This document shows, in pieces, positions 1 through 23,133 of a stretch of DNA of 64,000 nt. The stretch is from Thiobacillus sp. (lineage in GTDB: Bacteria; Pseudomonadota; Gammaproteobacteria; Burkholderiales; Thiobacillaceae), in NCBI GenBank assembly GCA_019459055.1, contig JAIBEI010000010.1, forward strand, positions 1-64,000, given 5' to 3'. Positions within the stretch are counted from its first letter, which is position 1; each line of letters opens with the position of its first letter. The notes beneath the pieces were generated by a model. The model was not told the origin of the DNA, made no database searches, and saw nothing but the letters and a program-made list of their open reading frames with translations. Position numbers and translations under genes: made by a program.

Positions 1-256
1 GGCGGCGGCGAGGGTGTAGGGCTGCCAGCCGTGGAGTTTGCGCGGACTGAACAGGCTGGTCTGGAAGCCTTGTTCGGTTTCGATGGGTGCGCGGACCTTG
101 TTGCTGTGGGTGCCGAAGGGCAGCTTGTTGGGGTCGCCGGGAGTGTGGGTCTTTTTATTGGGGTGGGCGGCCATGAAGGCGGCGAGGGCACTTAGGGGGC
201 GGCGAGATCGGTTTTCCGGGCGTCGGCGTCGAGTATGGCTTGCATGAGCCGGGGCG
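1..256 (-). pseudogene. Fragment of a third transglutaminase-like gene copy (runs off window)
   Basis: Read on the minus strand, bases 1 to about 180 encode a peptide nearly identical to residues about 166-221 of the transglutaminase-like protein at 3644-5779, including the shared stretches KTHTP, LPFGT, VRAPIETEQGF and LFSPRKLHGWQPYTLAAA. The DNA match to 5114-5300 is obvious by eye. Upstream of base 180 the similarity decays: one frame reads RLMQAILDADARKTDLAAP and then a stop, and no signal peptide or start is present. The copy therefore lacks its first ~160 codons and begins flush against the small gene at 257-520. Its 3' part lies outside the window, so I cannot say whether it carries another C-terminal domain. 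It may be a relic, or the start of a further recombination cassette. Confidence 0.75.
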
Positions 257-609: not shown

Positions 610-1092
610 TCAAGAACAAGAGTCTTGACCCGAAAGAATACTATTCATCCTTTCCCTGGCAGTCACAGCATCCTTGTGAGTCATACTTACGGTTGAGTAG
701 TTCTTGCCGTTAGCGAGCCATATTCTGACTACCCACGACCGTTGTCCTCTTGCAGAGGTCATGCCCAAGCGAATTTCGGCAACATCGCTCTTTGATACGG
801 TAACCGGCTTGTCCGCAATTGGCCTCCAAAGCAAGAGCTTATTTTCGATGCAGTCGAATTGGTAAATTTCTTCCAGATAGTGAAAGCCCCACCATATTCC
901 AAGTACGGCAAACACACTTCCCCATATAACAAATCTCTTCGCGAGAAATCGAAACTTTAAATCTGTTCCGAACTTTTCCTGCGCAAAGATCCCTCCCAAC
1001 AGAACCCCGACCGCAACCGCTATTCCTACGGATAAGAAGAAGGAATCTCTTTGGGCTTCAGGTAGCGCCAGCACCACACCTATTGCTTGCAT
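610..1092 (-). CDS. Small membrane protein, candidate immunity partner of the orphan module
   Basis: This 160-residue protein has two likely membrane segments, around residues 18-36 (FFLSVGIAVAVGVLLGGIF) and 53-70 (RFVIWGSVFAVLGIWWG), and then a soluble beta-rich C-terminal half (residues 75-155) that ends in CS. The ATG lies inside the last codons of the upstream orphan C-terminal ORF (stop at 1080-1082), giving a 13-base overlap, so translation is probably coupled to it. I do not recognise a named family; the C-terminal half vaguely resembles a bacterial PH-like domain. Its position directly behind a hydrophobic C-terminal module, and the coupling, suggest a dedicated partner such as an immunity protein. 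That is inference from layout, not homology. Confidence 0.65.
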   Translation of the reverse strand: MQAIGVVLALPEAQRDSFFLSVGIAVAVGVLLGGIFAQEKFGTDLKFRFLAKRFVIWGSVFAVLGIWWGFHYLEEIYQFDCIENKLLLWRPIADKPVTVSKSDVAEIRLGMTSARGQRSWVVRIWLANGKNYSTVSMTHKDAVTARERMNSILSGQDSCS

Positions 1093-2357
1093 ATAGCTAC
1101 GTTATTGAATGTTGATCTAATTGCCCCATCCGCTAAGAACCCAAAGAACCAAAATACCCAAGCAGCCAACGCTAACGAGCCAAAAAGGGCCCCCAAAGCT
1201 AGGGCAACGATTCCTAGTGCAACATATGCAGCTAGTGCACCTGCATCGCAAGGTCCCCCATCAAGTGAATCAAGGAACAAGATCAGGCCCACAGTAAACA
1301 ACGCAGCCGCTATCGTGAAAGCCAGCAGAGGTACCAGGAAAGGTAGGAGACCTGAAGTCACTGGAATTGAACCAATCATGGCTGCCACTAATCCAATCAC
1401 ACCTGCGTTGCTATCAAGAAAATTTAGCGTCCCGCCGTTGGCTCCGCCTGATATCTTATACGCCCCCGCCCCGCTGTCCGGATCAAGAATGATGTAACCA
1501 ATTCCCTTCCAGCCATAGGCAGTGATATCCGACTGATGCACCGTCACTTCCTTGCCTGCATAGAGGGCGTTTGATATCTCCGCCTTAGAGTCCGCGTCGG
1601 TGGCCAGGCTGGCAACGATGGATGCATGGTAAGCCTGATTCTTGTTGTTGAGGGTGTAGATCTTCTGTCCTTGGCTTGCTGCGATGGCGAGCGCCTTGAC
1701 CGCGCTCACGCCCTGTGGCTGGCTTGGGTCGGTGGTCGGCTTGCTGGGGTCGGCAAACAACTGCTCGGGTACGGCGTGCTCGAAGGCGCTGGCGGCCGAG
1801 CCGATCTGCCGGATGTAGGCAATCCGCTTCTGGTTGTCGGCGTCCTTGGCCTCGGTGTGGATGGTGATCCGGTCCACGTCCATGGTAACGCCGGGGAAGC
1901 TGACATTCCTGACGATGCCGAACCAGTAGTGCGGCTGCGCTGTGGCCATGAACACGCCATAGCTGGGCAGACGATAGGCGACGACTTGTTTGCCGGTTTT
2001 CGCAGCCAGTTGGTCGCTGCTGTCGACACTGGCGAAATAACCCAGTATCCCGGCGTACATGAGATCACCCGACAGGTCTTCCTTGGTGAGGTTCTCGATA
2101 GGTGACGGGTCGTTGGGGTTTTGCTGGAATTGTTCCAGCTTCGTTTTCGTTTTTTCGAGCCTGGCCTTAAGCGCAGCCAACTGACTGGCTGATATGCCTT
2201 GCAGGTCCAGCCCGATGGCCTGGTACTCCCCGGCGATGGGGTGGTTTGGCTCGCCCTCGCTCCAACCGCGGCTTCGGGTTTGGTGACGCCGCCGACCCAG
2301 TTCATGACCTGCTCGGCGGGCATTTGCACGGTGCCGTAGGCGTATCGCGCGGGGATC
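1080..2357 (-). pseudogene. Orphan C-terminal module of the transglutaminase-like protein
   Basis: Two blocks of the full-length gene are joined here. Bases 2268-2357 match 4749-4838 almost exactly (the block encoding IPARYAYGTVQMPAEQ and onward). From about 2265 down to 1080 the sequence matches the full-length protein from GWGYGGDNQPVAGE to the C-terminus. About 850 bases between them are missing, and the two blocks are in different frames. An open frame with a TTG start at 2453 runs through all of it (457 codons), so a product remains possible. The C-terminal part keeps the shared pre-tip region (QVVAYRLPSYG, MDVD, GVSA, AGKEVTV, ILDPDSGAGAYKISGG). It then carries its own ~117-residue hydrophobic tip with three or four membrane segments and Cys near the end (AICKQ). 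No signal peptide or promoter is visible. This is the form expected of a displaced toxin cassette. Confidence 0.7.
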
Positions 2358-2415: not shown

Positions 2416-2766
2416 TCAAGTAGGAGCAGAGTCGGAATGAGTATTTTTTCCAACTTCTCGCAAGGGCAGAAGTTCGTAGATCAGGACAAATGACATAAGA
2501 GCAATAACTATCACAATTCCCCAACCAACAAATAACCTGCTTAGCTCAAAGTTATTTCCATAGAGGGCCTTCATAATTATTCGTTCAACTAAAAAACCTA
2601 CTAGCATACCGATACCAACCAATCCCTGATATTTCTTCATAGGTCCAGAAATAGTCGAATTGCAATGCTTGCAAATCACCGGGCCGGCTTCAGTCGAGAA
2701 TCCAGGCCCAAGCAAATTTATTGGGGTAATCGTCTTTTTGCAGACAGGGCATTTTCTAAGCAACAT
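2416..2766 (-). CDS. Zinc-ribbon two-TM membrane protein, candidate immunity partner
   Basis: I chose the ATG at 2766 because an AGAGG ribosome-binding site sits eight bases upstream and overlaps the stop codon region of the preceding gene (stop at 2778). A longer frame to 2871 would overlap that gene. The 116-residue product starts with a zinc-ribbon-like pair, CPVC near residue 6 and CKHC near residue 32. Two membrane segments follow: YQGLVGIGMLVGFLVERII, then LFVGWGIVIVIALMSFVLIY. It ends in a short polar tail. I cannot name a family. The immediate coupling to a protein with a hydrophobic variable C-terminus makes an immunity or assembly role plausible. The DNA is visibly AT-richer than the transglutaminase-like gene, which fits a cassette of separate origin. 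Confidence 0.7.
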   Translation of the reverse strand: MLLRKCPVCKKTITPINLLGPGFSTEAGPVICKHCNSTISGPMKKYQGLVGIGMLVGFLVERIIMKALYGNNFELSRLFVGWGIVIVIALMSFVLIYELLPLREVGKNTHSDSAPT

Positions 2767-2777
2767 TTCATTGGCCT

Positions 2778-3652
2778 CTAGGGTTTTGTGCAAAGGGGCG
2801 CTTGCTTCACAAGGCCTGCCAAGTAAGTCAAAGTTTGGCTCAAAAGAATTCCTAGAAACCAGCCAAGCCATAGCCCAGCAAACGAAAGGATCGCAAAAAT
2901 CATGACCGAGGCAACAATAAATATCGCTGCCATGTACATGGCAAACTCCTTATCCCCGCACGAATACCAGAGATCAATGAGCTGCAACTCCAATGAAATC
3001 ACTGCACCGAGAACTCCATAAAATTTAAAGATAGAGGTCTCGGCGGCCCCCGCCAAAATCATCAAAGCTGACTTGTAACCGAAGTACCCCTCGAACACAT
3101 TGCCCAGAATTTCGGCGAACCCCCCATTCAGTCCTCCGCCGATTTTATACGCTCCCGCACCCGTATCCGGGTCAAGGATGAGATAACCCGTTCCTACCCA
3201 GGACCCCACGGTCAGATTGCCCTGCGGCACCGTGACCTCCTTGCCTGCCGCAACCGCATTGGCGATTTCTGACTTGATATCCGGGCTTACCGTCAGCAAA
3301 CCCAGCACCGCGTTCACGTTGCTCTGGGTGATCTGGTATATCTTCATTCCCTGTTGCGCGGCCAGCGTCAGCAAATTCATGGCGGAAACACCGTTGACTT
3401 GGGATGTTGGCGTCGAGTAGATCATTTCCGGCACACCATTTTCCATCAGTGAACTGAGTGCGCCTGTCGACAGGACAAAACTTTTTCTCGTTGCTGCGTC
3501 AGCATTCTTGGCCTCGACCATTTGCGATGACCAGTCCACGTCCATGATCAAGCCGCCCGACTGCACCGACCTGGGCAGTCCAAACCAGTAGTTGGTTTTC
3601 ATGCCAAGAATGGTCTGGCCAAACGATGGCATACGGTAGCTCACTACCTGGG
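2778..3652 (-). CDS. Frameshifted C-terminal part of the transglutaminase-like protein with hydrophobic tip
   Basis: This is the continuation of the gene at 3644-5779 in another frame, entered at the run of four C (minus strand) at 3650-3653. One extra C would join SGS directly to PQVVSYRMPSFG, which is the sequence expected from the orphan copy. The segment has about 180 residues of pre-tip region shared with the orphan module (MDVD, GVSAMN, AAGKEVTVPQG, ILDPDTGAGAYKIGGG). A ~113-residue tip follows, with strongly hydrophobic stretches (SALMILAGA, FYGVLGAVISLELQLI, MYMAAIFIVASVMIFAIL, LWLGWFLGILLSQTLTYLAG) and Cys residues at WYSCGDK and PLCTKP. Tip and orphan tip align only loosely but share Cys placement. 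An internal start in the overlap is not obvious, so production depends on frameshifting, an assembly error, or the gene being broken. Confidence 0.7.
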
Positions 3653-5779
3653 GCTGCCTGACTGGGCGATGTTGTTCATGCCATCCAGCATGCCAAAGTA
3701 ACTGAGGATCGTTGCATAGAGCATGTTGCCCGACAGATCCTCGGCCTTGAGATCTGACGCCTTCTGGTCTATGCGCTGGCTGGTAGCTTGTAATGCCATC
3801 TTGATCTGATCCAGTTGCGGCCTGGATATGCCTGCCACGTCGACAAGAATGGCGGCCAGTTCGCCCGCAACAGGCTGATTGTCGCCGCCGTACCCCCATC
3901 CCCTGCCCGGCTGGAGCAGTCCCATGCTGCTGACCAACTCAGTTCCCATGGTAAAGACGCCGCCTGATGCAACTGGCTGTCCGTTGACTCTAAGCTCGGC
4001 TTTGAGCCTTATCAGGTAGCCAGGCAAACTGGCGGGCATTTCACTCAGTTGAATCGGGGTGCCATCCGGGTGCGGGTCGGGCAAGTAGGAAGCGATCAAG
4101 TCCGCGTCTGTTTGAGCGGCTGGCACGAATGCGAGGGTGATCTTTTTGTCGCCAAGCTCTACCAGTGAGCGGGTAAACGAGAATACGGGACTGTCCAACG
4201 CGCGATCCAATTGGCTTACGTACAGGTTGAATTGGAATTTGTGCCTCAGGTTATCCGGCATGGCGGCGAATCTAGCGCCGGTGACGATGGTCTTGTACGG
4301 CAGGGTGCCCAGGAGGATCGACGGACTCTGCTGTTGAATGGTCTTGCTGCCGAGCACGTCGCCGACGGTGGCGTCGGGCTGGGTGCTGTCGATGTAGGTC
4401 TTGACCTGGGCCTGGTAGCTGGTGAGCGCGGTTTGCAGGTTGGCCTGGTTGAGGTTCTGCACCCAGCCTTCGGTTTCGTTGACGGTGGCGCCTTGTTTGC
4501 TCTGGTCAAGCAGGGTCTGGGCATCCAGCGGGACGGCGGTCTTGAGGTCCATGCCTTGGGTGTACTGGTATTGCTTGAAGCTGGGGTCGAGCTGGATCCA
4601 GGTGTCGCCGGCCTTGTTGACGGCGCCGCGGCTGGGGACGTAGTCGACGTAGGCTTCGACCCAGACGTGTTCGAGCTTGAAGGCAATAACCTTGCCGCCG
4701 GAGACGAGGGCGACGTTGGGGATGCCGCCCTGCCCCAAGAGGCTTTGCGCGGCTTCGGGTTTGGTGACGCCGCCGACCCAGTTCATGACCTGCTCGGCGG
4801 GCATTTGCACAGTGCCGTAGGCGTATCTCGCGGGAATGCCGGCGGCGCGCAAGAGGGCGATTTCTAGGCTGGCGGTGTCGAAGGCGTTGCCGCGTTTGGA
4901 TTGCAGGGTGAGATCGGCGCCCTGGATGGATCCGTAACTGGGGATGAACTCAATGTTGTTGCGAACCCAGTTGTGGATCTGGACGGGGTTGTTGTTGAGC
5001 GCGGCGGCCTGGGCGCGGATGGCGGGGGTGAGCTGGACGTCTTCGGTCTCGGCCAGATCGGCGGCGGTGGGGGTGGGGCCGGCACTTGCGGGCAGGCTGA
5101 TGCCGGTGAGGCTGCCGGCGGCGGCGAGGGTGTAGGGCTGCCAGCCGTGGAGTTTGCGCGGACTGAACAGGCTGGTCTTGAAGCCTTGTTCGGTTTCGAT
5201 GGGTGCGCGGACTTTTCCGTCCGGTGTGCCGAACGGGAGGTTGTTCGGGTCGGTGGGGGTGTGGGTTTTGCTCTTCTGGTTTTGTTCCATGGAGGTGGAG
5301 AAGTCTTGCATGGCGCTGCCGCGCCGGGTTTCGTCTTCGCTGTCGTCGGCGTCGACGAGGGCTTTGATCTTTTGCTTGAATTCGGCCTGCTTGGCCTTGT
5401 AGTCCGCCACGGCGGCTCGGTGGCGGGCGAGGATTTCGGCGGGGAGGTTCTTGGAGATCAGGTCTTGCTCGGTGGCAGCGAAGGCGTCGTCCACTTTGGC
5501 TTCGAGGGCTTCGAGCTGGGCCTTCTGGGAGCGCAGGGTTTTAGTGTCGTCGCGAGTGCTTTGGCCCTTGCCGGCTTTGTCGGCGCCTTTTCGGGCGCTT
5601 TCCTTGATGTCGCCGAGGAGTTTGGCGTATTGCTCGTCGTCGCTCGGGGCCGTGGTTTGCGTTGCCTGTGCTTGGGCGAGCTTGACCTGGGCCACCGCCT
5701 GCAGGGGCTGCAGGGTGAGGCTGGTAAAGGTGAGGAGGACGAGGGCCGAGATGTGGCGCTTGAAGGGGGTGATGTGCAT
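3644..5779 (-). CDS. Secreted transglutaminase-fold protein lacking the catalytic Cys (N-terminal 711 residues)
   Basis: The product starts with a Sec signal peptide (residues 1-30, HISALVLLTFTSLTLQPLQA). A charged helical, probably coiled-coil region follows at about 45-165, and then a Pro/Thr-rich linker. A transglutaminase-like core lies at about 255-405: NNNPVQIHNWVRNNIEF, then RGNAFDTASLEIALLRAAG with IPARY, then HVWVEAY and TWIQLDPS. His371 and Asp398 of the papain-like triad are present. The position normally held by Cys in the G-x-C-x-D/E motif is Ala299, and no Cys lies nearby, so the fold is probably non-catalytic. Residues 405-711 are of unknown fold. The frame stops early at 3644; the homologous C-terminus continues in another frame. 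The gene follows the NIDO protein by 24 bases and appears to be the third gene of the operon. Confidence 0.8.
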   Translation of the reverse strand: MHITPFKRHISALVLLTFTSLTLQPLQAVAQVKLAQAQATQTTAPSDDEQYAKLLGDIKESARKGADKAGKGQSTRDDTKTLRSQKAQLEALEAKVDDAFAATEQDLISKNLPAEILARHRAAVADYKAKQAEFKQKIKALVDADDSEDETRRGSAMQDFSTSMEQNQKSKTHTPTDPNNLPFGTPDGKVRAPIETEQGFKTSLFSPRKLHGWQPYTLAAAGSLTGISLPASAGPTPTAADLAETEDVQLTPAIRAQAAALNNNPVQIHNWVRNNIEFIPSYGSIQGADLTLQSKRGNAFDTASLEIALLRAAGIPARYAYGTVQMPAEQVMNWVGGVTKPEAAQSLLGQGGIPNVALVSGGKVIAFKLEHVWVEAYVDYVPSRGAVNKAGDTWIQLDPSFKQYQYTQGMDLKTAVPLDAQTLLDQSKQGATVNETEGWVQNLNQANLQTALTSYQAQVKTYIDSTQPDATVGDVLGSKTIQQQSPSILLGTLPYKTIVTGARFAAMPDNLRHKFQFNLYVSQLDRALDSPVFSFTRSLVELGDKKITLAFVPAAQTDADLIASYLPDPHPDGTPIQLSEMPASLPGYLIRLKAELRVNGQPVASGGVFTMGTELVSSMGLLQPGRGWGYGGDNQPVAGELAAILVDVAGISRPQLDQIKMALQATSQRIDQKASDLKAEDLSGNMLYATILSYFGMLDGMNNIAQSGSPR

Positions 5780-5803
5780 GGTGATTCCCTTGTTGTCCTG
5801 TTT

Positions 5804-8800
5804 TTATTCGCCGAGCGCTTGGTTGAGCGGTTGGGCTAACAGCCATTCCAGTTCGAGCTCCTGCAGCCAGCGATCAACGGCAAGCCGGTAAGCGCTCATG
5901 TCCATACCGGTGACACGGTTTAGCTTGTCGATGGCGTCGAGCAGATTCCCGATGGCGTCCTCGTACTTGCCCTGAGCGGTCTTGGCCACCGCATCCTGTA
6001 ACGCCTTGATGGCCTGGTCGCGGGCCTCGCGCGCACTGCTGGCGCTGAAGCTCAATGCCTGGAGTTCGGCGATGAGATGGGAGGTGGCGGCAGGTTCCAT
6101 GGCGGATGCAACGTTGATCGCCAGGGGGTAGCTGCCGTAGAGCATGTCCTGGCCGTTCCAGGTGCTGTTGACCGTGGTGGCGAGGGTGTGGCTGCCGCTG
6201 GCCATGGGCATGATCAGAGCGAGGGTGAGGTCGGCGCCTTGTCCAGTCGCGAGGCTGAGGTTCCATTTGGCCTGGGTGTTGCCGGGGTCCACGCTGGCTT
6301 GCGGCCTGGTGTAGTACACGGTGGCGCCTAGCGGAAGAATATCGGTGACGTCCAATGCGACCGCTGGACCCTGGTTGGTGATGGTAGTCCTGACCACGGC
6401 GAAGGCGCCGGCAGTGAGGGGGTCTGGTGTCTGGGGCATGAGGAAGTCGAATGTCGTCCGCATGATGTCCTGCCAGTGGGGACTGACAGGCTGAGTTTGC
6501 GCCAGACTGCCGACGAGGTCGAAGGCCATGATCATGCCGTGCCCCTGGCCGTAGACGTTGGCGACAATGGCGGGGGTGTCGCCAGATGCGGCGCCGTCCT
6601 TGTCGCGCTTGTCCGTACAGTCGTCACATTTGAGCCCGGCGGGGAATTGGGCCTGTTGCGTGCCGTCGCCCAGGGCGAGCTTGAGGGGGCGGCCAACAGT
6701 GGCGAGGGTGCCGGGGGCGAACAAGGGGCCGGTGAGGGTGATGGACTTGTCCACCGGGGAAAGTTTGCCGCGGTAGAGCACCCCCGCAACTTCGTCCAGG
6801 AGGCCGTTGCGTTCATCGTGGATGCCGTCGAGCAGCAAGCCGTCGCCGCGATTGATGGCTTCGCGCACTTCTTGTGCCAGGCCATTATTGAGCTTCAGGG
6901 CACCGCCGCTGATCCAGTAGACGTTGTATATGCCGCTACGGAAGGCGGAACGGAAGTCCTCGCGAGTGACAGTCACCAAATGCCCGATTCCAAGGTTGGC
7001 CAGGGTGGCGTCGAGGAGCTGGGTGCGGGTGGCAATACATTCTTCATCGTCGCCGTTGCCTTCGTTGTTATTGCAACTGAGTAGCACCAGCACCCGGCTC
7101 TCGTTGCTTAGCGCTTGCTTGATGTCGAGCTTGAGCACCGTGAAGGACGTCTGTGCCAGGGTGATGGTCTTGCCGCCGATGGTGGCGCTGAGCAAGGCAA
7201 TATAGGTGGCGCCGTTGCCGCCGCCTGAGACCCAGTCGGTGCTCCCGTTGTGGCTATCGCCGATTGCCAGCGTAGTCGAATAGGGGTATTCGACTACAAG
7301 CTGCTGTTTTTCCGGGTCGACGATGCTGACCTTCAGTGGGAGATTGGCGAGCGCGCTGTTGCCATTATTGGCGGCGCTAAACGCCAAGTTGACGGTCTGG
7401 CCAAAACCGACCAAGGTGGGTGCCGCCGTGATTGTACCGGTCAAGCCGGCACCGGTTTCCGCAGTGGAGACAACCGTGAATTGTGTACTGGCTTGGGCCA
7501 GTTGTGTGCCATCGGCCTTGTTGACCATAAGCGACGCCGTGTACTGCCCTGCGGCAGAGGAAGCCAGCGGTACGTCGTACGAATAATCCGTCAGCGCGCC
7601 CGGCGACAACTGTGGCAATATTTCGGCCTTGCTGAACCATTCGTCGCCATCTGGACTCGTCACGGTAGTGACGATACGCAAATCGTCCAGCATCGCATTG
7701 GAAAGCAAATTGGTGACGCGGTCGCTGATGCGCACCGTATCGAACGGCTTGTAGATCTGCTTGTCGGTGGTGATCGTTGCCATGGCGCTCTGCCCGCTGG
7801 GCGCTGCGATCACAAACGGTGCCGTGCCGGATGCGATCACATCACCGGTGTTGTCCACCAACTCGGCTAGCACCTTATAGTTTCCCACGTAGGTATTGCC
7901 GGTTTGGAAGTTCAATCCGGTGAATATGCCCGTTGCGCCGGCTGCAACCGTTTGGGCGGCGGTCGTGCCCAATGCGACAACTGGTGCATTGCCCGCATCC
8001 TGAATCGACAGCCTGACTGCTGCCGCACCCGAAAAGTCGGTCAGATTCTTCATTGTGCTGCTGATCTGCACGACTTCGTTGGGACCGTAACTGGCCTTGT
8101 CGGTCGACGGCGTGATCTGATAAATGGACGGATAGACATTTACGTATTCCGAACCCAACTCGGTTTTGACCGGATTGCCGTTGATGTCGTTGTACAGCAG
8201 TTCCAGCTTCGAGACGAGCAGCCGGTTTTCACCGGCAAGCGGATTCTTGAAGATGACGTCGAAGCTCAAATCCTTGGTGATGTTTGCCGGGAAGGCGTCG
8301 AAACGCCATTCGACGAGGGTCTGGCCATTTGCGCTGGTGACGCTGTATGGCGCAACTTGAAACGAGGCGGGGTCAATATCGATGTTGTCGGCATTGAGCG
8401 TCTCGATCAGGCGCACATTGACCAGATTCGGCGTCTTGACCGGATTGGGCGTTCCTCCCCTGACTTCGAAGCGCCATACACCCGGTTCGTCGACATTGCT
8501 GGTATCGGTCAGCTTGAGAATATTCGCTGTTTGCGAATCGGGATGCCGGTAATAGCTCTTTCCGTCTCCTGCGTCGTAGCCCATTTGCGCGGGTGTTCCG
8601 CCCAAACCGCCCGAGCCGCCACTGGCGCTGCCGGTAGTCCACTGCATTTGTTCATAGCGGTATTCGATGTCGAAATCGCCTTGCGCGATATCGTTACGGT
8701 CGGTAAGGATGAGCTGGAACGCATTCAACTTGTTGGTCGCGCCAGCGTAATAACCGACATAGTTCCAGGTGACGATGTATTTGCCAGGAATAGCCGTACT

Positions 8801-9268
8801 GTAATAGACGTTGTTCTGCAAGGGGTTGGCGGTGCCGCCGCGCGTATCGACATCGCCCCAATACGGCGCGAGCATGGGTAGGTTGGTGATTGGGAAAGGA
8901 ATCGGCGTATACGTTCCCAGCGGCGCTTTGAACGTGACATTGCCGTTGTTGTTGATGTAAAGGTTGGTGTAGTTGCCGGAGAAAAGTTTGATGCCGTATG
9001 GAAATCCCGCACCAAGCATCTTTACGCCGGATGAGCCGTCATCGTTACGCCCCATCGCCAGTGTCCCGAATCCTGATGTACCGCCTAGACCGTTGATCAA
9101 TGGGGCCGCTTCGGCGCGTTCAAATACAGGTCCGCTACAGAGAACAAGCACGACAAGAAGGATGCGCAGGACCGTTTTTACAGCACCGATGTTGAGCATT
9201 TTTGTATACCCGGCATGCAGAATATTGGTAGGGATTAGGGAATTCGTGCCACGATGCGTGGTCATCAT
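5804..9268 (-). CDS. Large secreted NIDO-domain, Ig-like repeat protein
   Basis: I set the start at the first ATG of an ATGATG at 9268, with GGAG five bases upstream and overlapping the stop of the preceding gene. The open frame continues much further upstream but only as an overlap of that gene. The 1154-residue product has a long n-region and signal peptide (about 24-54, LRILLVVLVLCSG). A NIDO-like domain occupies about 85-270 (LYINNNGNVTF, PMLAPYWGDVDTR, NAFQLILTDR, GDFDIEYRYEQ). Three Ig/CARDB-like modules follow at about 380-600 and 610-710, each near a K-x-x-Y/F-x-P-x-D/E type segment. A Rossmann-like segment resembling a class-I glutamine-amidotransferase fold lies at about 722-945 (RVLVLLSC, YWISGGA, GDGLLLDGIHDERNG). 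A DUF11-like domain (958-1052) and a helical C-terminus complete it. It is probably a cell-surface or periplasmic scaffold; function unknown. Confidence 0.75.
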   Translation of the reverse strand: MMTTHRGTNSLIPTNILHAGYTKMLNIGAVKTVLRILLVVLVLCSGPVFERAEAAPLINGLGGTSGFGTLAMGRNDDGSSGVKMLGAGFPYGIKLFSGNYTNLYINNNGNVTFKAPLGTYTPIPFPITNLPMLAPYWGDVDTRGGTANPLQNNVYYSTAIPGKYIVTWNYVGYYAGATNKLNAFQLILTDRNDIAQGDFDIEYRYEQMQWTTGSASGGSGGLGGTPAQMGYDAGDGKSYYRHPDSQTANILKLTDTSNVDEPGVWRFEVRGGTPNPVKTPNLVNVRLIETLNADNIDIDPASFQVAPYSVTSANGQTLVEWRFDAFPANITKDLSFDVIFKNPLAGENRLLVSKLELLYNDINGNPVKTELGSEYVNVYPSIYQITPSTDKASYGPNEVVQISSTMKNLTDFSGAAAVRLSIQDAGNAPVVALGTTAAQTVAAGATGIFTGLNFQTGNTYVGNYKVLAELVDNTGDVIASGTAPFVIAAPSGQSAMATITTDKQIYKPFDTVRISDRVTNLLSNAMLDDLRIVTTVTSPDGDEWFSKAEILPQLSPGALTDYSYDVPLASSAAGQYTASLMVNKADGTQLAQASTQFTVVSTAETGAGLTGTITAAPTLVGFGQTVNLAFSAANNGNSALANLPLKVSIVDPEKQQLVVEYPYSTTLAIGDSHNGSTDWVSGGGNGATYIALLSATIGGKTITLAQTSFTVLKLDIKQALSNESRVLVLLSCNNNEGNGDDEECIATRTQLLDATLANLGIGHLVTVTREDFRSAFRSGIYNVYWISGGALKLNNGLAQEVREAINRGDGLLLDGIHDERNGLLDEVAGVLYRGKLSPVDKSITLTGPLFAPGTLATVGRPLKLALGDGTQQAQFPAGLKCDDCTDKRDKDGAASGDTPAIVANVYGQGHGMIMAFDLVGSLAQTQPVSPHWQDIMRTTFDFLMPQTPDPLTAGAFAVVRTTITNQGPAVALDVTDILPLGATVYYTRPQASVDPGNTQAKWNLSLATGQGADLTLALIMPMASGSHTLATTVNSTWNGQDMLYGSYPLAINVASAMEPAATSHLIAELQALSFSASSAREARDQAIKALQDAVAKTAQGKYEDAIGNLLDAIDKLNRVTGMDMSAYRLAVDRWLQELELEWLLAQPLNQALGE

Positions 9269-12006
9269 TTTTGCTCCACCCCTTTCAGCTGCAACTGGAT
9301 CCGAATCCGCTTGTTGCCATCCGGCGTCACGATATTTGGCGCAACAATCTGCACAGGCTCGATGCGAATGCCGGGAGCGACTTGCACCTCGCCGCTTGCC
9401 ACGACTTGCGGCACGATGTCTCCCGTTGATGTCAGCACCACCGGGTAGGCGCCGCTTGCCGTAAAGTGATAAAGGAAGGGTCCGAGAATCACCGATCCGA
9501 CCACGTCGTTTGGCTGCAACGAAAGCGTCCCTTCTTCCTCTTTCAATACCGACCCGGCAGGCGTCTTGAACTGGTATTTGAACGCGGTCGTCACAGGCTG
9601 ATTCGACTGATGTGATGCCTCCACCTTGAAGTACATCTGCTCGGTCGCATCCAAGGTCGTGAATGCCGGCAGAGGCGTCACATTCAGGCGCAGAACCGTC
9701 TGGCTCGGCACGATGGTGAAGGCGACCGTACGCACCGCCAACACGGTACGAGTACCGGTGCTCACATCCTCCGTGAACACGCTTGCTTTGATCTGGTATG
9801 TGCCCGGCGCGTACGATTGTGTCGACCACTTCTCGTCGACTGCGGTCGTGATGTTTGGCGGGAACGTGAAATGGTTTTGCGCAACGCCGTTTGTGTCAAG
9901 CCGGATCGCATCCTGAGTACTCACGACCTGCCCTTGCGGGTCGAAAATCGTGATGTCGACCACCGCGTCATTGATGGATTGCGCACCATTGTTCACGATT
10001 TCCATTTGCACTGTTACCGGCGCATAGGCGGGATAGCTGGCCTGGCCTGTCGTCAGCGATATGAATTTAAGATTGGTGCTGTCATCCAGGGACAGGGTCT
10101 TATCGAGACGAAATTCGCCCACAGTGGTGAAGCTCGCGGCGACTGTCTCGCTGGTGTAGCCGGGTGCACTGAATCGCAACGTTGCTGGGCCCATTTCCAG
10201 CCCTTCGATCCGGTAGGCACCCGTATTATCGGTCACCGCGCTGAGCGGCGTTCCAAGTACGGTTACCGTTGCCTGGTTGATCGCCTTTCCGGAATTGATA
10301 TCGGTCACTTTGCCTTGTAACGCAACTGTATTCGTCGCCTTGTCAAGACCAACCATTTGGAAGTCCGTCGCGCTGCCAGCGCCGAGCAGCACGGCGGCAA
10401 AGGATTTCGTCGCGTAGCCGTCAAGCGAAAAGCTGACTGGATAGGTGCCTGCGGCGATCCCGGCGATGTTGAAATGGCCATCCGCGCCGCTGGTTGCCGA
10501 AATGCCTGTCGTCTCGACAGACACCGTAACCTCCGCCAACGGCACAAGCGATACCGCATCAACGACCTGGCCAAGAATGCTTCCGGTGGTGCCTGTTGAT
10601 TGCCCAGCCAGTGACAAGCTAGGGCTGTATACCAGAACCGATCCGGCCACAATCGTTCCGGTGCCCCCGGCACTCGCATACCCTGCCTTGCTTGCACTGA
10701 CCGTGACCGCGCCCGGTGCAAGTCCGATCAAGCTATATGAGCCATCGGATGACGTCACCGCAGTCGCGTTGGCGCTTCCCGTCACGGAAATGGTGACGTC
10801 GGCCAGGGCCGTTCCCGTTGAACCATTCTTGACAACCCCTTTGAGGATTCCGCTCACCGGCGCAATCGGCATTTTGACAACGCCGAGGTCAATTGTGGTG
10901 CCGGCCTGCAGTGTAAAATTCAGCGACTGTGTCGCATATCCCGCAGCACTGATAGCCATCGTATAGGTGCCTGCGGTAACCGCCGAGAATGAGATTTTCC
11001 CGGAAATATCGCTAACCGAAGGTGCGTTGGCTGTACCTTGGATGATCGCACTAGCACCAGCCAGCGCTTGCCCCGTGGAGCCGTCTACAACGTGCAGCAC
11101 AACATTGCCGGTGGTGGGTGCGGGCTTCGGCTGGGCGGACAGCGCACGCAATGCCAGCGTAGTGACATAGGGATCGCCGTCCCAACTGCCGTCTATTCCC
11201 TGCTGCGATACCAGATATGCTGTCACACCAGATTGCAAGCCCGAATCACTAATCGAGCCAAGCAATGCCAGATAAACGACGCTTGTCTCCGCAGCATCAC
11301 CCCAGCTTCCATCGGCACTCTGATGTGATAAAACCCAAGTGTTTGCTTTGTTCAGCGCGTTTGCCGTTGCGGGGCTATTGGAGCTGACTTGCAACGCAGT
11401 CGCAGCAATTGCCGTGATGTAGAGATGAGAGCTATTCCCCGACACTGAATATCCCCCGCCCGCGTCCTGTGATGCCAGCAGATAATTAGTAATTGCCAAT
11501 ATCGCGGGGCTGTTATTACTGTTTGCTGCATTCAGCGCGAGCATCGCCCAAGCGGTATCCAGTGGGTTGCTTTCGTAGCCCAAGGCGCCGCCAAAGCCGC
11601 CGTCGGCATTCTGACGCGCCAAGAGCGTGGTTATGCTGGTGTCAGTATTCTGGCCGGCAAAGCTTAATGAAATGGCTTGGCGCGCCAGGTATTCGGTGTT
11701 GTCTTCAGTGTCCCCCGCGATGGCATTAACCAGCGGCGCAGGAATGGTTGCCAGCAGCTTGAGGGATGCCAGCGTTTCCGTGCGGCCTTGCATGGGAGTA
11801 GCGAGGGAGGTGGATTCGCCGGCAAGGCTGCCATCTGCCTGGACCTGGGCTTGCAGCCAGTCCAGCCCTTTCTGGATTTCAGGGGAGGGCGCGGCTTGAG
11901 CCAGCGCGCTGGCGAACACAAGAAGGAAAACAAATAGCCTCGTGGCCACGCGGCGACATGCGCGAATGGACTTCACGCCTTCTGGAATCAAACGCATGAC
12001 CTTCAT
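9265..12006 (-). CDS. Secreted alpha/alpha-toroid protein with four carboxypeptidase-regulatory-like repeats
   Basis: The 913-residue product begins with a signal peptide (VATRLFVFLLVFASALAQAA). Residues about 40-300 form a prenyltransferase/squalene-cyclase-like or thioester-domain-like helical toroid, shown by recurring QW-type motifs (QNADGGFG, QDAGGGYS, QSADGSWGD, QGIDGSWDGD). Four beta-sandwich repeats of the CarboxypepD_reg type follow at about 305-650, each with a G-x-V.. start and a GTY/GxxT turn followed by GY. The last ~260 residues look Ig-like. There is no DxDD cyclase motif, so a binding or structural role is more likely than catalysis. The first ATG (12006) has GGGAG touching it; the ATG at 11997 has better spacing (nine bases) and may be the true start. 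It is the first gene of the putative operon with the NIDO and transglutaminase-like proteins. Confidence 0.75.
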   Translation of the reverse strand: MKVMRLIPEGVKSIRACRRVATRLFVFLLVFASALAQAAPSPEIQKGLDWLQAQVQADGSLAGESTSLATPMQGRTETLASLKLLATIPAPLVNAIAGDTEDNTEYLARQAISLSFAGQNTDTSITTLLARQNADGGFGGALGYESNPLDTAWAMLALNAANSNNSPAILAITNYLLASQDAGGGYSVSGNSSHLYITAIAATALQVSSNSPATANALNKANTWVLSHQSADGSWGDAAETSVVYLALLGSISDSGLQSGVTAYLVSQQGIDGSWDGDPYVTTLALRALSAQPKPAPTTGNVVLHVVDGSTGQALAGASAIIQGTANAPSVSDISGKISFSAVTAGTYTMAISAAGYATQSLNFTLQAGTTIDLGVVKMPIAPVSGILKGVVKNGSTGTALADVTISVTGSANATAVTSSDGSYSLIGLAPGAVTVSASKAGYASAGGTGTIVAGSVLVYSPSLSLAGQSTGTTGSILGQVVDAVSLVPLAEVTVSVETTGISATSGADGHFNIAGIAAGTYPVSFSLDGYATKSFAAVLLGAGSATDFQMVGLDKATNTVALQGKVTDINSGKAINQATVTVLGTPLSAVTDNTGAYRIEGLEMGPATLRFSAPGYTSETVAASFTTVGEFRLDKTLSLDDSTNLKFISLTTGQASYPAYAPVTVQMEIVNNGAQSINDAVVDITIFDPQGQVVSTQDAIRLDTNGVAQNHFTFPPNITTAVDEKWSTQSYAPGTYQIKASVFTEDVSTGTRTVLAVRTVAFTIVPSQTVLRLNVTPLPAFTTLDATEQMYFKVEASHQSNQPVTTAFKYQFKTPAGSVLKEEEGTLSLQPNDVVGSVILGPFLYHFTASGAYPVVLTSTGDIVPQVVASGEVQVAPGIRIEPVQIVAPNIVTPDGNKRIRIQLQLKGVEQK

Positions 12007-12224: not shown

Positions 12225-14713
<2,489 letters not shown>

Positions 14714-14717
<4 letters not shown>

Positions 14718-16186
14718 AGGGAATAGAGTGCAAGGTAGTGATCGGCGCTTTCCGACCAGTCGAATGACTGGCGCATGCCGGTCTGCTGCAGCCGCCGCCA
14801 CTGCGTGGGCTGGCGATACAGCGCGAGCGCACGCCGGATGGCGTCCAGAAAGGACGCCACATCCGGGGTATCGAACGCGAAACCGGTGGCGCTGGCGTCT
14901 TCCAGCGTGGCTTCATTCGTATCGACCACGGTGTCGGCCAGCCCGCCGGTCTTGAAGACGACGGGCGGCGTGCCGTAGCGCAGGCTGTACATCTGGTTCA
15001 GGCCGCACGGCTCGAAGCGCGACGGCATCAGGAACATATCCGCGCCGGCTTCGATCAGGTGTGCCAGCGGCTCATCGTACCCGATCTCGACGAACACCCG
15101 CTCCGGGTGCTGTTTGGCCAGCCGCGTAAGTTTCTGCTCGTACGCCACCTGGCCGCTGCCGAGCAGCACGAAGCACACGTCGGTCTCGGCGAGCAGCACC
15201 GGCATGGCCGCCAGCACCCAGTCGATACCCTTCTGCTCGACCAGCCGGGTCACCAGCCCCAGCAGCGGGGCCTGCATCACCGCCTCATCGGCGTGCGGCA
15301 GAAAACGTTCGAGCAAGGCCTGCTTGTTGCGCCGCTTGCCGGGGAGGATGCGGCTCATCGAATAATGCGCGGGCAAGTAGACGTCGGTGGATGGATTCCA
15401 GATTGTCGTATCAATGCCGTTCAGAATGCCGTGCAGCTTGGATTGCATCGAAAGCAGCAGGCCGTCGAGTCCGTAGCCGAACGCCGGCGTGCAGATTTCG
15501 GCGGCATAGGTGGGGCTCACCGTGGTGACGGCGTCGGCATACACGATGCCGGCCTTCAGCATCGAGAAGCCGCCGTGGAACTCCGCGCCCTCGGACGACC
15601 ACCAGTGGCCGGGCAGCTGCAAACGCAGGAAATCGCTGTGCGAGAAATAGCCGCCGTAGGCCAGGTTGTGAATGGTGAACACGGTTTTCGGACGCAGCGG
15701 CTGGTCGGCCAGAAACGCCGCGACCAGCCCGGTCTGCCAGTCGTGCGTGTGCACCACCGCCGGCTGCCAGCCCAGGTCCAGCGCGTCCTGCGCCAACAGC
15801 GCCGCCACCCGCGCAAACACCGCGAAGCGTTCGGCATTGTCCGGCCAGTCCTGGCCGCTGGCACTGACATAGGGGTTGCCTGCGCGATCGAACAGCGGCG
15901 GACAGTCAATTATCCACAAGGGAAACGCATAGTCGGGATGGCGCGTTTCCAGAATGCGCGCGCTGACGATGCCTTCGGCCCCGCGCACGTCGAGCCAGCC
16001 GAGAATGCGCACCTGTTCGAGCTGGCGCAACAGCGCGCGATAACCCGGCAACACCAGGCGGATGTCGGCCCCGCGGTGATGCAGGGCATGCGGCAGGCTG
16101 TAGAGCACGTCGCCCAGCCCGCCGGTTTTCACCAGGGGATAGGCCTCGCTGGCCACAAACAGAATTTTTATTGCTCCGCGTTTCAT
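14714..16186 (-). CDS. glgA: Glycogen synthase (ADP-glucose)
   Basis: This GT5 glycosyltransferase extends alpha-1,4-glucan from ADP-glucose. The 490-residue protein opens with [32 protein letters not shown] binds the nucleotide-sugar phosphate. It contains [17 protein letters not shown] and the C-terminal [18 protein letters not shown] block of the GT-B fold, where the Glu is catalytic. Length is typical (about 480-490). The glgP start overlaps its stop by four bases, which implies coupled translation. It is separated from glgB by a 147-base junction full of TCAGGG repeats, the largest gap but one in the cluster. Confidence 0.95.
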
Positions 16187-16333
16187 TTTTTCTTAGGGGT
16201 CAGGGATCAGGTGTCAGGGATCAGGGGGCTTTGTGCGTCGCGCCTTTGGCTTTGTGCGTCGCGCCTTTGAATAGGGGTGGTCGAGGCCACACAAACCCTG
16301 ACCCCTGACTCCTGACCCCTGACCCCTTGCTCT
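16187..16333. repeat. TCAGGG-type intergenic inverted repeat with a 21-bp tandem duplication
   Basis: The glgB-glgA junction has several GGGGTCAGGG/ATCAGGG units near the glgA side and several CCCTGACCCC units near the glgB side, so the two ends are inverted with respect to each other. Between them GGCTTTGTGCGTCGCGCCTTT occurs twice in perfect tandem (16227-16247 and 16248-16268). Similar TCAGGG inverted elements occur at 31544-31605, 38760-38826 and 61978-62077, with a more divergent one at 28703-28785. No coding potential. Confidence 0.7.
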
Positions 16334-18541: not shown

Positions 18542-19890
18542 GGTTTGGATTTTGTCTCGCATCGATGGGCTTTCTGTAATTGTTCCAGCAAATTTGATGC
18601 CAGATTGGGCGGCAGCGCATCCCAGGCAAACCGCCAGGTCCAGTTGCCGTTGTCGGTACCCGGCGTGTTCATGCGTGCCTCGGAGCCCAACCGCAGCACA
18701 TCCTGCAGCGGCAGAATCGCCAGCGCAGCACGGCTTTCCAGCACCGTGCCGATCATCGTATCCGGCACCGCATCGGGATCGTCGACGTTTAGTTGCCGCA
18801 TCACCTCCTGGCGCGCCTCGCCGGGCAGCGCGCGCCACCAGCCCAGCGTGGTGTCGTTATCGTGGGTGCCGGTGTAATAGACGGTGTCGGGGTGCACGTT
18901 TTCGGGCTTGTGCGGATTGTCGGCATGATGGTCGAAACCGAATTGCAGCACAGCCATGCCGGGCAAGCCGAACCGGTGGCGCAGCGCGGTGACCTCCGGG
19001 GTGATGATGCCGAGATCCTCGGCCACCAACGGCAACTCGCCCATTTCGTCGGCAATTGCCTGCAGCAGCGCCGCACCCGGCGCCTCGACCCACTCGCCGT
19101 GGATGGCGGTGGGTTCATGGGCGGGGATCACCCAGGCTGCCGCCAGCCCGCGGAAGTGATCGATGCGCACCAGGTCGAACCACTCGAAATGCGCGGCGAG
19201 CCGCGCCCGCCACCAGGCAAAGCCGTCGGCCTGCATCGCCGCCCAGTTGTAGTGCGGGTTGCCCCAGCGCTGCCCGGTTTCGGAAAAGTAGTCCGGCGGC
19301 ACCCCGGTCACCACCGCGGGATGCCCCACGTCATCCAGCAGGAACAGGCCGCGTTGCGCCCATACGTCCGCACTGTCGTGGGCGACGAAAATCGGCATGT
19401 CGCCGAACAGCAGGATGCCGTGCGCCGCCGCGTGCGCGTGAATGCGCCGCCATTGCATGGCCGCGCCGTACTGTTCGACCATCACCGCTTCCAGCTTGTC
19501 GGCGTGGGCAGCGTCGAACCCGGCCAGCGTCTGCGCATCGCGGTCGCGCAGCGCTGCCGGCCATTCGGTCCAGGGCGCATTGCCCTGCTCCGCCTTGATC
19601 GCCATGAAACGCGCAAAATCCTCCAGCCAGTGCGCCTGCCTGCGGCGCCAGTCGGCAAAGCCTTGCATGTCGACCGGTTCAGCGGGAAACAGCCCGGGAT
19701 GGACCGCGAAGGCCGACGCGCACTGATAGGGCGACAAGCCGGTGAGCGGAATCCCCAGTGGCAGCATCTGCCACACGCCGAAGCCCGCCGCCTGCAGGAA
19801 ATCCAGCCAGCGCTCGGCATCGGCCAGGGTGCCGGAAGGCAGCGAGGTCGGATGCAGCAGCAGGCCGGCGCAATGAGTGTCAAAGTTCAT
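18538..19890 (-). CDS. malQ: 4-alpha-glucanotransferase (amylomaltase)
   Basis: This GH77 enzyme disproportionates malto-oligosaccharides and recovers primers for glycogen metabolism. The 450-residue product is a little shorter than the ~500 typical of bacterial MalQ. It has GLLLHPTSLPSG, the 'SPYQCASAFA' substrate loop, the nucleophile Asp in LVRIDHFRGL, the Glu in LVAEDLGIITPEV, and GTHDNDTTLGWW near the C-terminus. It starts MNFDTH and lies 160 bases downstream of the GH57 gene. Its stop overlaps the glgB start (ATGA), placing it firmly in the glycogen cluster. Confidence 0.93.
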   Translation of the reverse strand: MNFDTHCAGLLLHPTSLPSGTLADAERWLDFLQAAGFGVWQMLPLGIPLTGLSPYQCASAFAVHPGLFPAEPVDMQGFADWRRRQAHWLEDFARFMAIKAEQGNAPWTEWPAALRDRDAQTLAGFDAAHADKLEAVMVEQYGAAMQWRRIHAHAAAHGILLFGDMPIFVAHDSADVWAQRGLFLLDDVGHPAVVTGVPPDYFSETGQRWGNPHYNWAAMQADGFAWWRARLAAHFEWFDLVRIDHFRGLAAAWVIPAHEPTAIHGEWVEAPGAALLQAIADEMGELPLVAEDLGIITPEVTALRHRFGLPGMAVLQFGFDHHADNPHKPENVHPDTVYYTGTHDNDTTLGWWRALPGEARQEVMRQLNVDDPDAVPDTMIGTVLESRAALAILPLQDVLRLGSEARMNTPGTDNGNWTWRFAWDALPPNLASNLLEQLQKAHRCETKSKP

Positions 19891-20050
19891 TCGGGGAATC
19901 CAGCGGCGATCCGCGAAGAAGCGCGAAGAAAAGCAAAAGCTTGTGTTTGTTTGTGCCTGCGCAGCAGCCGGTACGAAAACACATGCCCTGGTATGGGTTT
20001 ACTTCGCGCGCCTTCGCGTCCTTCGCGGATAAAGGTTTTTACTCCGTTCA
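19891..20050. repeat. Intergenic inverted repeat (CGCGAAG / CTTCGCG type)
   Basis: The GH57-malQ junction has GATCCGCGAAGAAGCGCGAAG at one end (about 19908-19930) and CGCGCCTTCGCGTCCTTCGCGGAT at the other (about 20007-20030), an inverted pair about 100 bp apart. CCTTCGCGGATGAAGATTTT at the recO-era junction (about 42168) looks like one half of the same element. There is no credible ORF. It could form a long hairpin in the transcript. Confidence 0.55.
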
Positions 20051-23081: not shown

Positions 23082-23133
23082 GCCCGCTCCTGGTTGCGCT
23101 GGTTTGGAATGAAATGCGATTGGATACGATTGA

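What the first reader, a model, noticed from the sequence alone, without database searches (positions are those of the whole stretch)
5779..12006. Three secreted proteins of unusual domain make-up in one operon
The toroid plus regulatory-repeat protein, the NIDO/Ig/amidotransferase-like protein and the dead transglutaminase protein all have signal peptides. The genes overlap by an ATGA or are spaced by a few bases. The first two may form a surface scaffold or secretion partner for the third. I know of no characterised complex of this composition.
Basis: partly seen in the sequence, partly recalled or inferred. Interest (0 to 1): 0.6.

Follow-up and report, generated by a model that had tools for sequence, protein, structure and literature searches.

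The report
Secreted mix-and-match toxin with scaffold genes
The three genes look like a bacterial weapon: an exported toxin whose tail is swapped like a cartridge and paired with a protective neighbour gene, carried together with two exported scaffold-like proteins that often accompany such toxins but seem undescribed as their partners.

Summary
The three secreted genes are real, but the stated interval covers only A and B; C runs on to 3644 and, after a one-base frame change, to 2778. C is the head of a polymorphic toxin: export signal, coil, dead transglutaminase, conserved middle, then a swapped tail. Among 75 complete relatives every head pair is similar (median 41% identity), but only 44 of 5550 ordered tail pairs are. 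Tails of up to 150 aa, mostly hydrophobic, are followed by a membrane gene (51 of 53), longer ones by a soluble gene (15 of 17). Two further tail cassettes follow. A (toroid plus regulatory repeats) and/or B (macroglobulin-like chain) lie upstream in 44 of 54 relatives; in five relatives a type II secretion-like cluster adjoins A. In the window genome the set is a ~13.4 kb insertion after glgP, absent from a sister species. Inactive-transglutaminase toxins were described in 2012, as always RHS-bearing; for the RHS-less form and its A/B partners I found no description in the searched library. Best reading: a variant polymorphic toxin system, probably type II-exported, mostly with membrane-attacking tails. 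No function was tested; the window's toxin gene is broken or misassembled.

The parts
9265..12006 (-). Gene A: secreted alpha/alpha-toroid (no thioester, no cyclase DXDD motif) + four CarboxypepD_reg repeats + C-terminal beta-rich part related to B by profile, 913 aa
   Evidence: no CxEQ and no DXDD in A, none in 48 homologous toroid segments
5804..9268 (-). Gene B: secreted NIDO + string of macroglobulin/Ig-like domains + alpha/beta (amidotransferase-like) domain + beta domain + helical end, 1154 aa
   Evidence: best fold matches complement C5, CD109, alpha-2-macroglobulins, E about 1e-17 but TM-scores about 0.1; the NIDO part is found in 2 of 78 relatives
3644..5779 (-). Gene C, first part (711 aa): signal peptide, coiled coil, dead transglutaminase (Cys replaced by Ala), conserved middle; reading frame broken near 3650
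2778..3643 (-). Gene C, continuation in another frame: conserved junction region ending ...DPDTGAGAYKIGGGLNGG, then a 113 aa hydrophobic variable tail (2781-3119)
   Evidence: handled as a separate piece, not joined
2416..2766 (-). Candidate immunity gene I1: zinc-ribbon-like N-terminus + two hydrophobic segments, directly after the tail (start chosen by eye; the ORF can be read from 2871)
   Evidence: (below curated cut-offs); CxxC + membrane genes also follow tails in L088, L130, L135 (by eye)
1080..2356 (-). Orphan cassette: short C fragment (2258-2356, 91% identical to C residues 315-347), then a second junction region and a 116 aa hydrophobic tail (1083-1430)
610..1092 (-). Candidate immunity gene I2: 160 aa with one hydrophobic segment by the cut-off used
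1..201 (-). Third C fragment (residues 155-221), runs off the contig; the first 141 bases are identical to the start of contig C5, where the fragment goes on to about residue 353 and is followed by a hydrophobic stretch and an 85 aa membrane-like ORF
12226..12288 (-). 3' end of glgP; a 63-base copy (62 of 63 identical) lies at C5:1333-1395 at the other end of the insertion; the compared 430 bases of a sister genome have a single copy and no insertion

Best explanation
A-B-C is a polymorphic toxin system. C is a Sec-exported toxin carrier: its coil and catalytically dead transglutaminase domain are a docking head, and a conserved middle ends in a fixed glycine-rich junction (typically GAGAYxIxGGxNGG). 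After it a toxin tail is exchanged by recombination with spare cassettes kept downstream. Most tails are about 95-145 aa of multi-helix hydrophobic sequence that would insert into the inner membrane of a rival as a pore or ionophore; a minority look like soluble enzymes (nuclease, NlpC/P60, Ntox16, phospholipase). The small gene directly after each tail is its immunity protein: a membrane protein for membrane tails, a soluble one for longer tails. A (toroid + regulatory repeats) and B (macroglobulin-like chain, amidotransferase-like domain, changeable extra domains such as NIDO) are exported partners that hold or present C outside the inner membrane. Type II secretion is the most likely way across the outer membrane. 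Shown by sequence: tail variability, tail/neighbour matching, cassette remnants, co-occurrence, single insertion in this genome, loss of the catalytic cysteine. Inferred: toxicity, immunity, physical A-B-C contact, type II export, target. The window copy may be inactive or misassembled.
For:: 75 complete C ORFs (from 70 loci); head part similar in 5550 of 5550 ordered pairs (median 41%), tails in 44 of 5550 (56 clusters); tails of 150 aa or less are followed by a gene with a hydrophobic segment in 51 of 53, longer tails by one without in 15 of 17 (Fisher 2.4e-11); some tails carry known toxin-type domains (members matched of 74 at E up to 0.01: DUF6310 3, NucA/NucB 2, NlpC/P60 1, Ntox16 1, phospholipase A2 1; weak colicin pore 1); two further tail cassettes in the window genome; 20 partial copies in 14 of 78 loci. 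A/B co-occurrence; one ~13.4 kb insertion at glgP, empty site in a sister genome; no Cys at the catalytic position in 86 of 86 (pattern-biased) and in 24 of 24 class-search homologues that cover it. C protein of L063 folds with mean pLDDT 83; transglutaminase domain matches 3ISR at Z 13.2. T2SS pseudopilin G in the window genome and in 44 of 45 host genomes searched. T2SS-like clusters adjoining A in 5 relatives.
Against: No toxicity, immunity or secretion was measured. In one search the split by hydrophobic segments in the tail (2 or more) was not significant (p = 0.28), because long tails also contain hydrophobic stretches; the 150 aa split was chosen after seeing the data, and only ORFs starting from -60 to +150 of the tail's end were considered. 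BLAST may miss similarity between short hydrophobic tails, so the cluster count is an upper limit. Ten of 54 relatives have C without upstream A or B. The clusters beside A are in 5 relatives only; the two T2SS clusters seen in the window genome are of another type (secretins 26-27% identical over about 280 residues) and on other contigs; prevalence of T2SS in genomes without the system was not measured. The Mantel correlation of A or B with C distances is modest (0.37, 0.35) and host descent could cause it. Neither window tail has a recognised domain.
Confidence: 0.72

Rival explanations
1. C is a toxin carrier, but A and B are not its partners: they are adhesion or cell-surface genes that merely travel on the same islands.
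For: Ten of 54 relatives carry C without upstream A/B; A alone in G202 and B alone in G280; 5 of 13 giant C loci have no toroid gene in the fetched stretch.
Against: A or B upstream in 44 of 54 relatives, same strand, mostly close to C, fused to each other in 22; among ORFs of 80 aa or more no other gene recurs in more than 4 loci (the one six-locus cluster overlaps C on the other strand in L086 and occurs almost only where my caller missed C); 14 of 16 A-bearing genomes also have C (Fisher 3e-17).
Confidence: 0.15
2. Not toxins: C is a surface protein whose hydrophobic tail is a variable membrane anchor, and the small neighbour genes are cognate membrane partners of a signalling or recognition system.
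For: Most tails are multi-helix hydrophobic (49 of 57 short tails have two or more segments), which could anchor rather than kill; no enzyme domain is recognised in the window tails.
Against: Other tails on the same head match nuclease, NlpC/P60, Ntox16 and phospholipase families, and long tails are followed by soluble genes; displaced tail cassettes downstream are typical of toxin loci; CDI ionophores also are helical tails with polymorphic immunity proteins (PMC11630599, abstract read).
Confidence: 0.1
3. The system was acquired on an island and is decaying in this genome: C is a pseudogene, the cassettes are remnants.
For: Frame change near 3650, truncated C copies at 1-201, 2258-2356 and C5:1-537; 10 of 11 C-like hits in other genomes of the genus lie in giant ORFs of 1666-2544 aa, so the window type is not shared there.
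Against: No further stop in the continuation of C, and A and B are intact over about 2000 codons; the source is a draft assembly that breaks inside this repeat, so a one-base assembly error is possible. Compatible with the best explanation for the family.
Confidence: 0.45
4. A, B and C form a protease trap or envelope-defence complex like alpha-2-macroglobulin, and the tails are secondary.
For: MG2 domain in B and MG-chain fold matches; weak TED_complement hit in A, better one in L049.
Against: No thioester motif in 48 of 48 toroid segments; domain order differs; the variable part is the C tail.
Confidence: 0.04

Closest known systems
Polymorphic toxins with inactive transglutaminase domain (Zhang et al. 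2012, PMC3482391; section 19 and passages read)
   Same: N-terminal signal peptide, catalytically dead transglutaminase, varied C-terminal toxins; anchoring by peptide binding is proposed there for the dead domain
   Different: They are said to be 'always' followed by RHS repeats; the window type has none and its relatives are about 1000 aa. The held text (first 300,000 characters) has no hit for toroid, prenyltransferase, macroglobulin or carboxypeptidase regulatory
CDI ionophore toxins, CdiA-CT/CdiI (PMC11630599, abstract read)
   Same: helical membrane-active tails, highly polymorphic immunity proteins, modular tail
   Different: delivery there is by CdiA; no transglutaminase head and no toroid/macroglobulin partners are named in that abstract
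TANFOR polymorphic toxins of Bacteroidetes (PMC7073777, passages read)
   Same: mostly Sec-exported polymorphic toxins for which a second-step secretion system (T9SS) is hypothesised from neighbouring genes
   Different: different N-terminal domain, different phylum, T9SS instead of T2SS-like neighbours
Alpha-2-macroglobulin / complement family
   Same: MG-type domains and an alpha/alpha toroid
   Different: split over two genes or fused in another order, no thioester, plus regulatory repeats and an alpha/beta domain
VARTIG modules of Thermococcales (PMC8416519, passages read)
   Same: Ig-domain protein in a hypervariable locus organised like polymorphic toxin systems; archaeal macroglobulin homologues near toxin-system genes
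   Different: archaeal, no transglutaminase in the text, different architecture

Membership tests
Polymorphic toxin system | conserved N-terminal trafficking part with unrelated C-terminal tails | tested here: met
   heads 5550/5550 ordered pairs similar, tails 44/5550
Polymorphic toxin system | immunity gene directly downstream, matched to the tail | tested here: met
   gene present and matched by compartment class (51/53 and 15/17; other split p = 0.28); neutralisation itself not tested
Polymorphic toxin system | displaced stand-alone tail cassettes nearby | tested here: met
   window 1080-2356 and 1-201 plus C5; 20 partial copies in 14 of 78 loci (criterion: junction region, no coil, closed ORF under 900 aa)
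Polymorphic toxin system | recognised toxin domains as tails | tested here: met
   in some relatives only (8 matches to DUF6310, NucA/NucB, NlpC/P60, Ntox16, phospholipase A2 among 74 tails); none in the two window tails
Polymorphic toxin system | toxicity and neutralisation | not testable with these tools
   needs expression
Inactive-transglutaminase RHS toxins (Zhang 2012) | transglutaminase with lost catalytic residue(s) | tested here: met
Inactive-transglutaminase RHS toxins (Zhang 2012) | array of RHS repeats after the transglutaminase domain | tested here: not met
   no RHS in the window C by Pfam; RHS-like motif count 0 or 1 in the called main C ORFs of the 78 relatives except L139 with 12 (five loci had no called ORF). 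11 of 13 giant relatives have 3 or more
T6SS Rhs effector | T6SS in the genome | tested here: not met
   no VipB (PF05943) in the 99.98% complete genome; control rang in E. coli
CdiA / two-partner secretion toxin | TPS domain and TpsB porin | tested here: inconclusive
   no TPS domain reported in C by Pfam; the ShlB search rang nowhere, also not in the controls
Alpha-2-macroglobulin | thioester in the toroid | tested here: not met
   0 of 48 toroid segments, and not in A
Type II secretion substrate | Sec signal peptide and T2SS in the genome | tested here: met
   hydrophobic N-terminal stretch in C 56 of 60, A 39 of 42 (hydropathy only); GspG twice in the window genome, with E, F and secretin genes beside it
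Type II secretion substrate | T2SS-dependent export | not testable with these tools
   needs secretome of a gspE mutant

The most novel reading that the evidence does not exclude
A distinct class of polymorphic toxin delivery: an RHS-less carrier with a dead transglutaminase head is loaded on an exported toroid/macroglobulin-like scaffold (A-B) and sent out or displayed by type II secretion, in some lineages by a dedicated T2SS variant with a TPR-secretin protein encoded beside A. It would be a contact or diffusible weapon without RHS cocoon, T6SS or CDI, specialised in membrane-attacking tails.
Probability: 0.45. Interest if true: 0.82.

Novelty: new variant of a known kind. Interest (0 to 1): 0.68.

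Why it matters
It turns a description of odd secreted proteins into a testable toxin family; the scan found 334 related stretches in genome contigs, and the best 80 come from many proteobacterial and some Nitrospirae records. It offers a possible function for the dead transglutaminase domains noted in 2012 (docking to a conserved partner), names candidate partners (A, B) and a candidate export route (T2SS), and supplies dozens of small candidate membrane-toxin/immunity pairs. Type II secretion as a route for polymorphic toxins against bacteria would be worth testing directly.

Tried and rejected
T6SS as the route in this genome: rejected for lack of VipB. Two-partner secretion: inconclusive. 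NIDO as the defining part of B: rejected, 2 of 78 relatives have it; other B-type proteins carry integrin-like (L083, N-terminal) or IgGFc-binding-like (L049, internal) domains, and the hits of B in same-genus genomes cover only its NIDO part, in ORFs of 256-338 aa. Thioester or terpene-cyclase chemistry of A: no motif. NCBIfam gave nothing above a curated cut-off for A, B, C or the tails; PADLOC and PHROGs gave no hit at the limits used. Fold searches of the C model recognised the transglutaminase domain (Foldseek 3ISR, E 0.009, no match at E 0.001 or better; Z 13.2) and helical bundles; absence of a match for the rest shows nothing. Other conserved neighbours: none in more than 4 loci. Plasmids: 17 records with partial matches, most of the listed ones annotated as RHS proteins, none covering 80% of the query. 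Literature: nine searches. On inactive-transglutaminase polymorphic toxins they led only to PMC3482391; the two other papers mention the words in other contexts (passages read: PMC10318531, a human protein; PMC12886038, a vesiculation screen in Shewanella that also lists an Rhs protein). PMC12419801 and PMC3710099 (passages) have nothing on it. Nothing on A/B as partners was seen; most papers were seen as listings only and subscription papers are not held.

Weak points kept in view: the pattern scan was itself biased to Ala/Ser at the Cys position, so one search was used as a check (25 homologues, 24 with a residue there, none Cys; His is lost in one, Asp in two, and some rows have gaps). Only the best 80 of 334 relatives were kept, which favours the RHS-less type. 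My gene caller missed the C ORF in L086, L093, L112, L137, L138. Some loci are the same records as (L118, L126, L129). One of the 75 tails (3 aa, L119) was left out of the 74 scanned. The neighbour test dropped 5 of 75 (2 at contig ends, 3 without an ORF). One search was given 45 of the 78 loci, mainly those with A or B upstream.
Full report
WHAT IS THERE. On the minus strand A (9265-12006), B (5804-9268) and C (3644-5779) follow each other; A and B overlap by ATGA and C begins 24 bases after B. All have a hydrophobic N-terminal stretch. Pfam: A = toroid and four CarboxypepD_reg stretches; B = NIDO and MG2; C = Transglut_core. The catalytic Cys of C is Ala, His and Asp are kept. The reading frame of C breaks near 3650 and goes on in another frame to 2778; the two pieces were treated apart.

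DOWNSTREAM. The continuation of C ends in a glycine-rich junction and a 113 aa hydrophobic tail, followed by a zinc-ribbon-like membrane gene (I1). Then comes a 99-base C fragment (91% identical to residues 315-347), a second junction region with a different 116 aa hydrophobic tail, and a second small gene (I2). A third C fragment at 1-201 runs off the contig; its first 141 bases equal the start of contig C5, where the fragment goes on to about residue 353 and is followed by a hydrophobic stretch and an 85 aa membrane-like ORF. The third pair resembles the tail and neighbour of L064 by eye. G+C is 0.575, 0.586 and 0.618 in A, B and C but 0.41-0.48 in the tails and small genes.

RELATIVES. C homologues occur in 24 of 369 genomes of the class, the own one included. 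They are of two types: RHS-less proteins of about 1000-1170 aa, and giants; 11 of 13 giant loci fetched have three or more RHS-like motifs. A scan of genome contigs found 334 relatives; the best 80 gave 78 loci, by their titles from beta-, gamma- and deltaproteobacteria, myxobacteria, Nitrospirae and others.

TAILS. Of 86 C ORFs with a nearly whole transglutaminase domain, 75 (from 70 loci) had a stop, carried the junction region to its end and were under 1400 aa. Their heads are all alike (5550 of 5550 ordered pairs; median 41%), their tails hardly ever (44 of 5550; 56 clusters). 57 of 75 tails have 150 aa or less, 49 of these with two or more hydrophobic segments; same-length pieces of the heads had two or more in 0%. 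Of 70 tails with a usable downstream gene, short tails are followed by a gene with a hydrophobic segment in 51 of 53, long ones by a gene without in 15 of 17 (p = 2.4e-11). The split at 150 aa was made after seeing the data; a split by hydrophobic segments in the tail gave p = 0.28. Pfam families matched by tails, of 74: DUF6310 3, NucA/NucB 2, NlpC/P60 1, Ntox16 1, phospholipase A2 1, and seven weaker single matches (E 0.0015-0.0095), among them the colicin pore domain. 20 partial copies lie in 14 of the 78 loci.

DEAD TRANSGLUTAMINASE. In 86 of 86 domains the Cys is Ala (82), Asp (3) or Ser (1); His is kept in 85 and Asp in 86. Because the scan pattern favoured Ala/Ser, 25 homologues found without a pattern were checked: of the 24 with a residue at the position none has Cys. 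The C protein of L063 (63% identical to the window C in its best segment) folds with mean pLDDT 83; its transglutaminase domain matches 3ISR at Z 13.2 over 152 residues, rmsd 3.8, although Foldseek alone gave E 0.009.

A AND B. Of 54 loci with 9 kb or more upstream of the match, A is upstream in 41, B in 43, either in 44; the two are fused in 22. Without upstream A/B: L067, L079, L080, L081, L106, L123, L125, L133, L137, L139; of these L125 and L133 have a toroid gene elsewhere in the locus. In 369 genomes A and C share 14 (A only 2), B and C share 8 (B only 2); Fisher 3e-17 and 4e-9. G264, which has A and B but no C hit, shows a C-like start after A-B, cut by the contig end (read by eye). Toroid genes also lie on the same strand beside giant C genes in 7 of 13 loci (L050, L175/L176, L180, L182, L184, L185, L187), on the other strand in L178, and not in L179, L181, L183, L186, L188. 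B's best fold matches are complement and alpha-2-macroglobulins (E about 1e-17 but TM-scores of about 0.1, so a chain of similar domains rather than one matching structure). There is no thioester or cyclase motif in 48 toroids. Distances of A and of B correlate with C (Mantel 0.37 in 42 loci and 0.35 in 35), which shared descent could also give.

INSERTION. 63 bases at the 3' end of glgP recur (62 of 63) at C5:1333-1395. In sister genome G006 glgP (95%) is followed after about 260 bases by the gene that lies beyond the repeat in our genome (89%), and the compared 430 bases hold a single copy of the repeat; in G013 the same two genes lie about 0.9 kb apart. Of 40 other relatives searched, 6 have that gene, and glgP was seen beside it in these two. 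So, if C23 and C5 join as their 141-base overlap suggests, A, B, C and the cassettes form one insertion of about 13.4 kb. Of 55 other genomes of the genus 8 have a C-like hit; 10 of the 11 hits lie in ORFs of 1666-2544 aa, one in 695 aa.

SECRETION. No T6SS sheath gene in the 99.98% complete genome, with the control ringing. T2SS G pseudopilin is present twice and in 44 of the 45 host genomes of relatives that I gave; no background rate was measured. In five relatives (L068, L077, L087, L113, L131) a cluster with pseudopilin G, F, E, a TPR-secretin protein and a further pseudopilin lies next to A, divergent from it in four and in line with it in L077; of four small proteins between E and the secretin all are matched in L220 and L221, some in L217 and L219. 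A cohesin-like domain was found in the secretin protein of L218 and L220 but not of L217. Four of these five were visible among the 39 loci that show 1.5 kb or more upstream of A, L131 after extension; L076 shows only a GspF-like gene. So the cluster is seen in a minority. The two T2SS clusters of the window genome are of another type.

MECHANISM AND STATUS. Sequence shows a carrier with exchangeable tails, compartment-matched neighbour genes, spare cassettes, and a widely conserved pair of exported companions, here in one insertion. I infer Sec export, holding of C by A-B through the dead transglutaminase head or coil, type II export, delivery to rivals and, for most tails, membrane insertion. 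Zhang et al. 2012 (section 19 and passages read) described inactive-transglutaminase toxins, always with RHS repeats, and proposed peptide-binding anchoring; A/B would be natural partners for that. C therefore works like those toxins but fails their RHS criterion, hence 'new variant of a known kind'.

Noticed in passing
L217, L218, L219, L220, L221: A T2SS-like cluster whose secretin carries N-terminal TPR repeats and, in L218 and L220, a C-terminal cohesin-like domain, next to gene A in five relatives; possibly a dedicated exporter.
   Followed up: partly
L015:1296-1340 (contig C5): Just before the second glgP repeat there is a short reading frame starting MSRPLRLE, like the start of a REP-associated tyrosine transposase (recalled, not searched); may be a trace of how the insertion arrived.
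   Followed up: no
L047:13601-14612 and 18414-19425: Two copies of a transposase-like gene pair (IS110-like by recall, not searched) lie around an orphan C cassette, suggesting another way in which cassettes spread.
   Followed up: no
L065:9010-9900, L068:9018-9923, also L074 and L124: A secreted-looking protein of about 300 aa recurs in four loci, in L065 and L068 between the fused A-B gene and C; function unknown.
   Followed up: no
L049:9906-15501: A run of five junction-bearing ORFs with small genes between them, downstream of a C gene: a long cassette array.
   Followed up: partly
L174 and L175: Giant A/B-like ORFs of at least 4701 and 5847 aa; in L175 directly before an RHS-type C (L176).
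   Followed up: no
L074:14496-20588: A 2030 aa ORF that begins with the junction region and has a tail of over 1800 aa, downstream of a normal C gene.
   Followed up: no
PMC12886038 passage: A review lists an 'inactive transglutaminase' and an Rhs-family protein among hits of a vesiculation screen in Shewanella vesiculosa; whether they belong to this family was not checked.
   Followed up: no
window 12225-23408: Glycogen genes (phosphorylase, synthase, branching enzyme, 4-alpha-glucanotransferase, GH57-like, glgC; named by recall from the translations) border the insertion and look ordinary.
   Followed up: no
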